A stretch of DNA of 64,000 nt from an uncultured Methylococcales bacterium (GTDB lineage: Bacteria > Pseudomonadota > Gammaproteobacteria > Methylococcales > Methylomonadaceae). The notes beneath the pieces are model-generated. The model was not told where the DNA came from. It saw only the letters and a list, made by a program, of their open reading frames with translations, and ran no database searches. The DNA is taken from the NCBI GenBank assembly GCA_913019935.1, contig CAJVZC010000005.1, positions 1 through 64,000 on the forward strand. The letters are read 5' to 3'. The position numbers and the translations under genes are program-made. Position 1 is the stretch's first letter, and the number at the start of each line of letters is the position of its first letter. Shown here in pieces: positions 11,262-61,609 of this stretch.

Positions 11262-12161
11262 ATGCCATCACCTGAAGCATTATTTGAATCTTCTATAACC
11301 AGTTTAACGTTACGTGCACGCGGTAAGGTGCGTGATATTTATGATATTGACGAGCAACATATGTTGATCGTTACGACGGATCGAATCTCTGCATTTGATG
11401 TGGTGTTGCCGGGTCCTATTCCGGGTAAAGGGCGAGTACTGACAGAGGTTTCTAATTTTTGGTTTGATAAAACGCAATCAATGGTACCTAATCATTTGGT
11501 TGATATACCCTTATCCGATGTGCTTCCAGACCCTCGTGAACGTGAAGAGGTTGAAGGTAGAGCTATTGTGGTAAAAAAATTAAAACCATTACCTGTTGAG
11601 GCCATCGTTAGAGGGTATTTAATTGGTTCGGGGTGGAAGGATTATCAACAAACAGGCGCTGTTTGTGGCATAACCTTGCCGACTGGATTACAACAAGGAC
11701 AGCGATTACCGAAGCCGATTTATACACCATCAACGAAAGCCGTTATAGGTGATCATGATGAAAATATTTCTTTTTCTGAAACCATCGGTCTTTTGGGTGA
11801 GTCGTTAGCGCAGCAAGTGAAAGAAGTGAGTTTATTGCTTTATCAAGAGGCGGCTGATTTTGCACTAAAACGCGGTATTATAATTGCTGATACCAAGTTT
11901 GAATTTGGCTTGGATGAGGCACAAATACTTTTTCTGATTGATGAAGCATTGACGCCAGATTCATCGCGATTTTGGCCTGCTGACCAGTATCGAGTGGGTA
12001 TTAGTCCGCCAAGCTTTGATAAACAATATATTCGTGATTACTTAGAAACACTTGATTGGGACAAAACGGCTCCTGGGCCTGCATTGCCTGATGATATTGC
12101 GCTGAAAAGTAGTGAAAAATATCGGGAAGCAAAATTTATATTAACCGGTTTAGCCGACTAA
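11262..12161 (+). CDS. purC: Phosphoribosylaminoimidazole-succinocarboxamide synthase PurC
   Basis: 299 residues, of the longer (~300) yeast-like class of SAICAR synthase rather than the ~237-residue E. coli type. It joins aspartate to CAIR with ATP in purine synthesis. Typical segments: RGKVRDIYD near the N-terminus, [66 protein letters not shown] and [14 protein letters not shown]. The ATG at 11262 has no evident Shine-Dalgarno sequence. The next gene, coaBC, starts 62 bases downstream. Confidence 0.95.
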
Positions 12162-12223
12162 TAACGATTATTCTAAGTGAGCTATGATTGTTTTGATCCA
12201 AAGAGATATGACAGGAGCCGGGC

Positions 12224-13414
12224 ATTACTAAGCGAATTTTATTAGGGATTTGTGGGGGTATAGCCGCTTACAAATCGGCTGAATTAGTCCGGTTGTTTCG
12301 TAAGCAGGGTGTTGATGTCAGGGTGATAATGACGGACTCAGCCATGGAGTTTGTTACGCCGTTAACATTTCAGGCGCTATCAGGGCATTCGGTTCATTCG
12401 AAATTATTAGATAGTGATGAAGAGAATGCCATGGGCCATATTAATTTAGCCCGATGGGCCGATGAAATTATTATTGCACCTGCTTCAGCGAATAGTATTG
12501 CTAAATTTGCACATGGTGTTGCCGATGATTTATTAAGCACCGTGGTCTTAGCAACACAAGGTAAGGTCACGTTAGCACCCAGTATGAATCAAGCGATGTG
12601 GCTTAATGGGGCTGTTCAAGAAAATATTGCGACATTGCGTGCACGGGGTATGGTTATTTTGAATCCTGAACACGGTAGTCAGGCTTGTGGAGAAACGGGT
12701 CCAGGTCGAATGGTTGAGCCAGAACATATTTGCCAAGAAATACTGCAGACTGCGGCTGGGCCGCTAAGTGGCGTTTCTGTGCTCATTAGCGCAGGACCGA
12801 CGCGAGAGCCTATTGATCCAGTTCGGTATATCACGAACCGAAGTTCTGGCAAAATGGGCTATGCGTTAGCAGAGATGGCTAAAAGTGCTGGAGCTGATGT
12901 GACTTTAGTCAGTGGCCCGGTGGCTTTAGCTCCACCGACCGGTGTTAAATTACTTGCGGTGGAAACAGCCGAGCAAATGTATGAACAAGTAGTGGACTGT
13001 TCAGCTAACGCTAATATTTTTATTGGATCAGCAGCGGTTGCAGATTACAGCCCTGTCGCTGAAGAAAACAAGATAAAAACAGCCGGTGCGAATAAAACGT
13101 TACTTTTACTAAAAACACGCGATATATTAGCCTCAGTGGCCGAGTCGAATGAGGCTTTGTTTACGGTTGGTTTTGCCGCTGAAACAGAACACCTTGAGGC
13201 GTATGCCAAAGATAAATTAGCGCGCAAGAAAGTTGATATGGTTGCTGCCAATTGGGTTGGCCGTGCAGACGGTGGCTTTGATAAAGAAAATAATGCGGTA
13301 ACGGTCTATTGGCGCGGTGGACAACAAGATTTTCCGATGACAGCTAAGCGGGATTTAGCACAACAACTTATCAAATTAATAGCGCAACAGTATTATGAAA
13401 AAAATAAAATTTAA
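12224..13414 (+). CDS. coaBC: Bifunctional CoaBC (phosphopantothenoylcysteine decarboxylase / phosphopantothenate-cysteine ligase)
   Basis: 396 residues when started at ATT 12224. The domain needs the N-terminal [20 protein letters not shown] stretch (FMN-binding CoaC start), which is encoded upstream of the first conventional start, TTG 12293. In this frame the only open bases before it run back to TGA 12209, with no ATG, GTG or TTG between. ATT 12224 has a GGAG six bases upstream (12214-12217), so it is the most likely initiator. Downstream lie the CoaC motifs ([21 protein letters not shown]) and the CoaB half with [28 protein letters not shown] and GFAAETE. The enzyme makes 4'-phosphopantetheine for coenzyme A. 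dut overlaps its last 20 bases. Confidence 0.93.
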
Positions 13415-37333: not shown

Positions 37334-38511
<1,178 letters not shown>

Positions 38512-60037: not shown

Positions 60038-60946
60038 ATGTTGAAACAGAGGACGCTTAAAAATATTATCCGAGCGACGGGGGTGGGTTTACATACTGGA
60101 GAGAATGTATATTTAACGCTGCACCCCGCAGAGCCTGATACAGGTATTCGTTTTAGACGAAGCGATATCGGAGCGTCTGCCATTGTCGATGCGACACCTG
60201 ATAATGTGGGTGATACGACCATGTCAACGACACTGATGCAAAATGGTATACGGGTATCAACCGTGGAGCATTTGATGTCGGCATTTTCAGGGTTAGGTAT
60301 TGATAATGCTATGGTAGATGTGAGTGCTGCGGAAATACCCATAATGGATGGAAGCGCAGGTCCTTTTGTTTTTTTATTACAATCTGCAGGTATAGAAGAG
60401 CAGGACGCGTGGCGTAAATACATTAGAGTTAACAAGCCTATTAAAGTAGTTGATGGTGATAAATGGGCTTCTTTTGAGCCGTATGATGGCTTTAGGGTTG
60501 GTTTTACGATTGATTTTGAACACCCTGCTTTTAAATCGAATGTTAAAACCGCAGTCATGGAATTTTCTACCACCAGTTTTATTAAAGAAGTGAGTCGTGC
60601 ACGTACCTTTGGCTTTATGAAGGATATTGAATTACTTCAGAAGAATAATTTGGCATTAGGCGGTAGTTTGGATAATGCGATTGTTGTTGATGATCTAAAA
60701 GTTTTGAATGAAGATGGTTTGCGTTACGCAGATGAATTTGTAAAACATAAAATGTTAGACGCAATCGGTGATCTTTATTTATTAGGGCATAATCTGTTGG
60801 GTGAGTTTAACGGCTATAAATCTGGACACAGTTTAAATAACCAACTTTTGCGGGCATTGCTCAAAGACACAGATGCTTGGGAGATGGTGTCTTTTAAAGA
60901 TGCTAAGGAACTGCCAAAGGCATTCGTGCAATCGTATGTTTCTTAA
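60038..60946 (+). CDS. lpxC: UDP-3-O-acyl-N-acetylglucosamine deacetylase LpxC
   Basis: 302 residues. First committed step of lipid A synthesis; zinc enzyme. Zinc ligands are in [16 protein letters not shown] (His ~79) and [19 protein letters not shown] (His and Asp around 238-242); the catalytic His follows in YKSGHSLNN. The upstream gap 59885-60037 holds a weak TAGAAT -10 (60000-60005) but no good -35. It usually follows ftsZ. Its stop overlaps the next gene's stop region by 4 bases. Confidence 0.96.
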
Positions 60947-61401
60947 GACATTTTATTCTTAAGTGTCTTGTGTAGTTGTAATAGGGCAGTGCTGAGTTCA
61001 CTGTCGGTGGTATGGGCAATGGCATTACTGTGAATCATATTAAGTGAGGCGTCAGATAGTTTTTTTGCATATCTTTTTTCCGGTTCAGGCGTTAACGCTT
61101 CAGGAAGCACTCTAATTTTAGTTTCAGTGACATCATTTTTCCCATGGGCATGTAATGCTGCCAGTATGGGTTGGTTTAGAAAACGTAATTGGCTGGCCCA
61201 TGTGGCTGATGTCGTATAAATAATAATAGTTTTATCTTTCTTGATGCAACTGGTGATATGCGGGCTGAAGTGATCAGGCAAATATTGGCAGATCACTTCT
61301 CGCAATATTTTTTGTTGAGTAATGATTCTTGTAAAGTGACTTGTTGCCTTGCCGCCCAAGGATAAGGCCGATTTAAAATGACTCTTTCGTTTGCTGCGCA
61401 T
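60943..61401 (-). CDS. DUF721 family protein, DciA-like
   Basis: 152 residues of the DUF721 (DciA) fold: a KH-like core [20 protein letters not shown] then [24 protein letters not shown], followed by a charged C-terminal tail. DciA is the ancestral loader or regulator of the DnaB replicative helicase; enterobacteria have DnaC instead. The lpxC - DUF721 - secA order is the usual one in many gammaproteobacteria. Tail-to-tail with lpxC (4-base overlap), divergent from secA. Confidence 0.82.
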
Positions 61402-61609
61402 TTCGCCAGTTGTCTCCAGGGTGTGGTTGAACTTTTTTTGGCTATAACCCGAGGTGAGTGTGGTTTATTATAACGGTTACGTGCTTTCAATACGGGAAAA
61501 CCAATAAAATAGTTAAAATAGACCTAAAGTATTGGGTTATTAGGCTGTTTTGAGGGCTTTGCTGGGGGGTGTGGTCATGATGGGTCTGTTAACGAAGGTT
61601 GATAAGGTA

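What the first reader, a model, noticed from the sequence alone, without database searches (positions are those of the whole stretch)
12208..12240. coaBC appears to start at an ATT codon
Seen: the CoaC N-terminus ([17 protein letters not shown]) is encoded downstream of an in-frame TGA at 12209, and no ATG, GTG or TTG lies between that stop and TTG 12293, which would delete essential FMN-binding residues. ATT 12224 has GGAG at 12214-12217, an ideal distance. Known: AUU starts are very rare and are discriminated by IF3 (infC and pcnB in E. coli). An overlapping seven-codon frame ATG 12208 to TAA 12229 covers the start and could couple or regulate initiation. Inference: coenzyme A synthesis may be tied to initiation-factor or tRNA status.
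Basis: partly seen in the sequence, partly recalled or inferred. Interest (0 to 1): 0.65.

Follow-up and report, generated by a model that had tools for sequence, protein, structure and literature searches.

The report
Rare AUU start codon on coaBC
In this methanotroph and many of its relatives, the gene for an essential coenzyme A enzyme appears to begin at the very weak start codon AUU instead of AUG, a feature kept over long evolutionary time that probably holds the enzyme at a low level.

Summary
In the window coaBC has no ATG/GTG/TTG between the in-frame TGA 12209 and TTG 12293; ATT 12224 lies 6 nt after AGGAG. It is not a sequencing error: the three congeneric genomes in which coaBC was found have the same ATT, AGGAG and spacing. 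Across the family I anchored 154 of 155 fetched coaBC starts. 48 of the 154 (15 genera) lack any ATG/GTG/TTG in codon columns -30 to -7; all 48 carry ATT or ATC at the window's ATT column (45) or ATT one codon earlier (3). A Shine-Dalgarno-like peak sits a normal distance before that codon. Outside the family, 63 of 63 anchored starts have ATG/GTG/TTG there. Two known AUN-start genes behave likewise: pcnB (ATT, also in this genome) and infC (ATC). So AUU initiation of coaBC is well supported as an old trait of the family, a new member of a small known kind. Low expression is the likeliest role; a tie to IF3 or tRNA status is untested. The overlapping seven-codon frame is a genus feature with a varying peptide and is not needed to explain the start.

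The parts
12224..13414 (+). coaBC (dfp), 396 codons read from ATT 12224 plus stop; first residue presumably fMet
   Evidence: TIGR00521 coaBC_dfp 446.1 bits over residues 3-386, profile 4-391 of 392; Pfam Flavoprotein from profile position 1 and DFP; PDB 6tgv CoaBC aligned from residue 3
12224..12226 (+). ATT, proposed start codon
   Evidence: No ATG/GTG/TTG from TGA 12209 to TTG 12293; same codon in 4 of 4 genus members with coaBC; at the same column ATT in 101 of 154 family loci, ATC in 12, ATA in 2
12213..12217 (+). AGGAG, Shine-Dalgarno sequence, 6 nt before ATT
   Evidence: Identical in 4 of 4 genus members although the 24 nt upstream of ATG 12208 differ at 20 of 24 positions between G000 and G003; family-wide energy peak at the same distance
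12209..12211 (+). in-frame TGA that bars any start further upstream
   Evidence: present in 4 of 4 genus members
12208..12231 (+). overlapping out-of-frame mini-frame ATG-TAA (seven codons); probably incidental or a genus-level feature
   Evidence: Present in 4 of 4 genus members but codons 4-6 vary and change residues; out-of-frame ATG frames overlap the start in only 6 of 45 family loci lacking canonical starts
12293..12295 (+). TTG, first canonical start codon in frame; not a credible start
   Evidence: Removes 23 residues including GGIAAYK: Pfam Flavoprotein falls from 117.1 to 89.0 bits and begins at profile position 24; TIGR00521 446.1 to 405.5 bits, from profile position 27

Best explanation
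coaBC is translated from AUU 12224, placed in the ribosomal P site by the AGGAG 6 nt upstream and read by initiator tRNA as fMet (this last step is general knowledge, recalled). The trait is old: it is shared by the window's genus and by many other genera of the family, so AUU (or AUC) at this column was probably in use in or near the family's ancestor, which had moved away from the xTG start, mostly at column -14, seen outside the family. Some lineages later moved to ATG or TTG close by. The likeliest role is to keep an essential enzyme at a low level, as shown for other AUN-start genes. Shown here: codon, SD, conservation, absence of alternatives. Inferred: that ribosomes start there, that output is low, and that IF3 discriminates against it. 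The confidence given is for AUU 12224 as the start; I put the low-output role at about 0.6.
For: Same ATT, AGGAG and spacing in 4 of 4 genus members with coaBC; the ATT and the next 21 nt show no difference in any of the six pairs, while 7-18 of the 99 nt from GGI onward differ. 48 of 154 anchored family loci, 15 genera, have no ATG/GTG/TTG in columns -30 to -7 (46 if everything back to the nearest in-frame stop is counted); all 48 have ATT/ATC at column -10 (39 and 6) or, in 3 of genus g11, ATT at -11. In 40 of 43 such loci the best anti-SD 7-mer ends 5-8 nt before column -10; mean -3.9 kcal/mol at 6 nt against 0.0 to -0.3 at 10-23 nt; of 45 loci, where ties were broken the other way, 44 have it at 2-7 nt. 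In 21 loci with xTG at -14 and none later the peak is still placed for -10, not -14; in 20 loci with TTG at -9 it is placed for -9. The genus is sister to the other 27 rows of the family part of the tree (100/96), so the shared column is old. Controls: 63 of 63 anchored starts outside the family have ATG/GTG/TTG in columns -30 to -7 (67 fetched). Positive controls: pcnB at ATT in this genome with no xTG nearby; infC at ATC in 27 of 27 anchored loci of 30 and in 4 of 4 genus members.
Against: No protein or ribosome-profiling data. 106 of 154 family loci do have some ATG/GTG/TTG in columns -30 to -7, so AUU is not forced everywhere, and 39 of 154 do not have an AUU/AUC/AUA codon at the column. 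7 of 45 forced loci lack an SD of -2 kcal/mol or better placed 4-9 nt before it. Ile at -10 also occurs in many loci with ATG at -12, so part of its conservation is amino-acid constraint. ATT:ATC:ATA at -10 in forced loci (39:6:0) resembles two ordinary Ile columns (36:2:4 and 33:6:6), so nothing shows preference for AUU over other AUN codons. In 21 of 70 loci with both an AUN at -10 and an xTG, the SD does not favour -10. Loci are phylogenetically related, so counts are not independent.
Confidence: 0.92

Rival explanations
1. Ribosomes start at ATG 12208 and reach the coaBC frame by a +1 shift near TAC TAA, or terminate at TAA 12229 and re-initiate on the overlapping AUU (coupling).
For: The mini-frame is present in 4 of 4 genus members; a +1 shift at TAC-TAA would enter the coaBC frame at AAG CGA (read).
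Against: 3 of 7 mini-frame codons vary and change the peptide; an overlapping out-of-frame ATG frame is present in only 6 of 45 family loci without canonical starts, which keep ATT/ATC and mostly the SD spacing. The AGGAG is 6 nt from ATT, a normal initiation distance.
Confidence: 0.04
2. Translation starts at TTG 12293 and the enzyme is shorter.
For: It is the first canonical start codon in frame.
Against: It removes GGIAAYK and the first strand; profile matches then begin at positions 24-27. Residues from column -10 onward are conserved in the forced family loci (columns up to +3 examined). G003 of the same genus has no canonical codon at that position.
Confidence: 0.01
3. ATT is a sequencing or assembly error for ATG, or the gene is decaying.
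For: The window's genome is an incomplete assembly (65.55% complete).
Against: Four genomes of the genus and many genera agree; the frame is intact to the stop.
Confidence: 0.01
4. Initiation uses another near-cognate codon nearby (for example ATT 12236), or ATT is merely an internal Ile codon conserved as an amino acid.
For: Ile is also kept at this column in many loci with ATG at -12.
Against: An in-frame stop lies five codons upstream in the genus, and stops occur at columns -12 to -16 in other forced loci; residue variability is 2.75 bits at -11 against 1.46 at -9 (the zero at -10 follows from how the set was chosen); the SD peak points to -10.
Confidence: 0.02

Closest known systems
pcnB of Escherichia coli, AUU start (Binns and Masters 2002; seen only as a reference entry in PMC13009471)
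   Same: Conserved AUU start after an SD; pcnB of the window's own genome also begins at ATT with no xTG nearby.
   Different: Different gene; pcnB shows ATT/ATC starts also in order members outside the family, whereas coaBC there has ordinary starts.
infC (IF3): AUU in E. coli (recalled), AUA in Staphylococcus aureus (PMC13009471, passages read)
   Same: AUN start; here infC has ATC in 27 of 27 anchored loci and 4 of 4 genus members.
   Different: infC is autoregulated by its own product in E. coli; no such loop is known to me for coaBC.
cvfC1 (AUU) and ccpN (AUA) of Staphylococcus aureus (PMC13009471, passages read)
   Same: Conserved AUN starts with a good SD; reporters gave about 10% of AUG, up to 30% for ccpN in rich medium.
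   Different: Other genes, other phylum; shown by experiment there, by comparison only here.
sigR GTC start of Streptomyces (PMC5472188, abstract and section list seen)
   Same: Rare start codon that holds a protein low; repressed by IF3.
   Different: GTC, a sigma factor; regulation shown experimentally.
pncA/bbe22 AUU start of Borrelia burgdorferi (PMC13398362, abstract and section list seen)
   Same: A metabolic enzyme with AUU start, whose database entry was truncated at a later start and lacks residues the fold needs.
   Different: A plasmid gene of one organism; no family-wide conservation was described in the part seen.

Membership tests
conserved AUU/AUN-start genes (the kind of infC, pcnB) | no ATG/GTG/TTG able to give the full protein | tested here: met
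   Window; 48 of 154 family loci
conserved AUU/AUN-start genes (the kind of infC, pcnB) | AUN codon conserved among relatives at one alignment column | tested here: met
   4 of 4 in genus; 45 of 48 forced loci at the column, 3 one codon earlier
conserved AUU/AUN-start genes (the kind of infC, pcnB) | Shine-Dalgarno sequence at normal spacing from the AUN codon | tested here: met
   6 nt in the window; 40 of 43 forced loci at 5-8 nt; 38 of 45 by the stricter energy test
conserved AUU/AUN-start genes (the kind of infC, pcnB) | initiation at AUN shown by protein or ribosome data | not testable with these tools
   Needs N-terminal proteomics or ribosome profiling
conserved AUU/AUN-start genes (the kind of infC, pcnB) | weak output, discrimination by IF3 | not testable with these tools
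   Inferred from PMC13009471 (passages) and PMC5472188 (abstract)
bifunctional CoaBC (TIGR00521) | match over the curated cut-off across CoaC and CoaB parts | tested here: met
   446.1 bits against a cut-off of 219.7, profile 4-391 of 392
translational coupling by an overlapping short frame | short frame conserved with the start across relatives | tested here: not met
   Present in 4 of 4 genus members, but only 6 of 45 forced family loci have an overlapping out-of-frame ATG frame

The most novel reading that the evidence does not exclude
In this methanotroph family coaBC has joined infC and pcnB in a small set of AUN-start messages that IF3 discriminates against, so that coenzyme A synthesis rises and falls with the state of the initiation machinery; the AUU start is kept for that coupling and not merely tolerated.
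Probability: 0.18. Interest if true: 0.72.

Novelty: new member of a known kind. Interest (0 to 1): 0.48.

Why it matters
Few bacterial genes are known to me to keep AUU/AUN starts over long times, mostly translation, RNA or regulatory genes (recalled, apart from the five cases cited). An essential cofactor gene with a family-level AUU start, next to family members that use ATG or TTG, offers natural pairs for testing why weak starts persist. It also warns that gene finders restricted to ATG/GTG/TTG would truncate CoaBC in such genomes.

Tried and rejected
Mini-frame coupling or frameshift, TTG 12293, sequencing error and an upstream start were considered and rejected for the reasons given under the rivals. 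RNA structure around the start is unremarkable (z 0.14). No sigma-70-like promoter was found in 12100-12300 by the simple scan. Codon choice at column -10 does not separate AUU from AUC or from ordinary Ile codons. The pcnB motif demands Ile first, so its 25 of 30 (22 ATT, 3 ATC) is biased towards AUN; the infC anchor does not demand it. My first infC motif found nothing and my first pcnB motif anchored poorly; both were replaced. Rows dropped: L136 from the family, L186, L195, L196 and L220 from the controls, L240, L243 and L245 from infC, L041 from the tree, none of which could be anchored. Congener contig pieces L270-L277, meant for a wider census of starts, were not used. Paper searches (listings, in part capped, of an open-licence library) showed no paper on an AUU start of coaBC or dfp among the titles and abstract openings listed. 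The look-up of the family name found nothing. An earlier count gave 43 of 45 for the SD at 2-7 nt; the output adds up to 44 of 45, which is used here.

Full report
What is there. The window's coaBC frame is open from 12212 to 13411, with its stop at 13412-13414. TGA lies in frame at 12209 and the first ATG/GTG/TTG is TTG 12293. Read from ATT 12224 the protein has 396 residues, [21 protein letters not shown]..., and matches TIGR00521 from profile position 4 (446.1 bits, cut-off 219.7) and Pfam Flavoprotein from position 1. Starting at TTG 12293 loses the first 23 residues, including GGIAAYK, and the profiles then begin at positions 24-27. AGGAG (12213-12217) ends 6 nt before ATT.

Genus. The genome search places the window in genus g1. 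A fifth, G002, gave no coaBC match. All four coaBC loci read ATGACAGGAG, six variable bases, ATT ACT AAG CGA ATT TTA TTA GGG. Between G000 and G003, 20 of 24 bases just upstream differ, yet the ten bases ATGACAGGAG, the ATT and the next 21 bases do not differ in any of the six pairs. G003 has a TTG two codons before the ATT, directly abutting AGGAG, too close to be served by it.

Family. Of 237 family genomes 222 gave coaBC. The printed list of places was cut, and I obtained start regions for 155 of the 222, anchored on the GGIAAYK motif; one (L136) could not be anchored. Columns are counted in codons before that motif; the window's ATT is column -10. Of 154 loci, 48 have no ATG/GTG/TTG in columns -30 to -7 (46 of 149, two more, L280 and L281; total), from 15 genera; counting back to the nearest in-frame stop, 46 do. 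Their column -10 codon is ATT in 39 and ATC in 6; the other 3, genus g11, have ATT at -11. Over all 154, column -10 is ATT in 101, ATC in 12, ATG in 3 and ATA in 2; 39 have something other than ATT/ATC/ATA. The three with ATG at exactly this column are G225 and G228 (which also have ATG at -14) and G029. Other lineages have ATG at -12, TTG at -9 or ATG at -8.

Where ribosomes would bind. Duplex energies with the 16S 3' end were averaged by distance. In 43 forced loci the mean reaches -3.9 kcal/mol for a 7-mer ending 6 nt before column -10 and is 0.0 to -0.3 at 10-23 nt; 40 of 43 have their best window at 5-8 nt. In 21 loci with xTG at -14 and none later, the peak is again placed for -10 (about -3.4 at 3-5 nt) and not for -14 (at most -0.9); there the TTGG looks like part of the SD. 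In 20 loci with TTG at -9 the peak is placed for -9. In 32 loci with ATG at -12 the picture is weaker and does not point clearly to either codon. With a stricter test (-2 kcal/mol or better, best window 4-9 nt before -10), 38 of 45 forced loci pass and 7 do not; among 70 loci that have both ATT/ATC/ATA at -10 and some xTG, the SD for -10 beats that of any xTG in 49 and does not in 21.

Controls outside the family. In 20 anchored loci of other families of the order (23 fetched) and 43 anchored loci across the class (44 fetched, out of a listing of about a hundred), every one has ATG, GTG or TTG in columns -30 to -7, most often at -14. Forced AUN starts are thus 48 of 154 inside and 0 of 63 outside.

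Positive controls. infC begins at ATC after a GGAG- or GGGG-type stretch in 27 of 27 anchored loci (30 fetched; two of them, L257 and L258, also have a TTG upstream in frame) and in 4 of 4 genus members; G000 itself gave no infC match. pcnB, with a known AUU start in E. coli, begins at ATT in the window's own genome (G000 contig 3, L301) with no xTG between the upstream stop and 15 codons into the gene; of 30 pcnB loci 25 showed the start motif, 22 with ATT and 3 with ATC, but that motif demanded Ile and several of these loci also have some xTG upstream. By the same comparative signs, these bacteria use AUN starts.

Age. In a 41-row CoaBC tree the four g1 rows are sister to 27 other rows (26 family loci and one Methylobacter record, L034) with support 100/96 for the 27 (midpoint root, for drawing). 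ATT at the same column on both sides is most simply an old trait of the family, later replaced in several lineages. This is parsimony by eye, not a fitted model; relationships inside the 27 are poorly resolved.

The mini-frame. ATG 12208 to TAA 12229 is in all four genus members with coaBC, but codons 4-6 vary and change residues, and only 6 of 45 forced family loci have any out-of-frame ATG frame overlapping the start. It could matter in this genus; it does not explain the trait.

How it likely works. Initiator tRNA pairs poorly with AUU in the P site, so initiation is weak and sensitive to IF3 (general knowledge; PMC13009471, passages read, reports about 10% of AUG output for conserved AUN starts, more for one of them in rich medium, and cites pcnB as translationally limited). 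A strong SD would rescue enough initiation for a low, steady supply of CoaBC. A dedicated link between CoA and initiation-factor status would need the start to be kept because of IF3; the codon data show no preference for AUU over other AUN beyond ordinary Ile codon use, which fits either weak-start selection or tolerance.

Known or new. Conserved rare starts are a known kind (infC, pcnB, cvfC1, ccpN; sigR with GTC; pncA of Borrelia with AUU). My searches showed no report for coaBC among the papers listed (titles and abstract openings of an open-licence library). I file it as a new member of a known kind. The GTDB family name Methylomonadaceae and the name purC for the upstream gene are recalled, not from a call.

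Noticed in passing
L301 (G000 contig 3, start of pcnB on the minus strand near 38214): pcnB of the window's own genome begins at ATT after AUAGGGAAAGG with no ATG/GTG/TTG nearby, like the E. coli AUU start.
   Followed up: yes
27 anchored loci among L240-L269, and L320-L323: infC begins at ATC, not ATT, in every anchored locus of the order sample and in four genus members.
   Followed up: partly
L021, L024, L122 (genus g6): An out-of-frame TTGAGCGAA lies just before coaBC in all three genomes, one base off the frame; no in-frame canonical start remains in columns -30 to -7.
   Followed up: no
family coaBC loci (table): Many family members outside g1 (not counted) carry TTGCCATAAT or close variants some 30-50 nt before the start, looking like an extended -10 promoter; in the window coaBC instead follows another gene by 62 nt.
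   Followed up: no
window 13395-13414: The next gene (dUTPase-like by recalled motifs, ATG 13395) overlaps the end of coaBC by 20 nt, suggesting coupled translation.
   Followed up: no
window 60946-61464, minus strand: ORF with 21 codons before its first ATG; only a weak DUF721 match (E 0.00088) begins well inside, so its start is unclear.
   Followed up: partly
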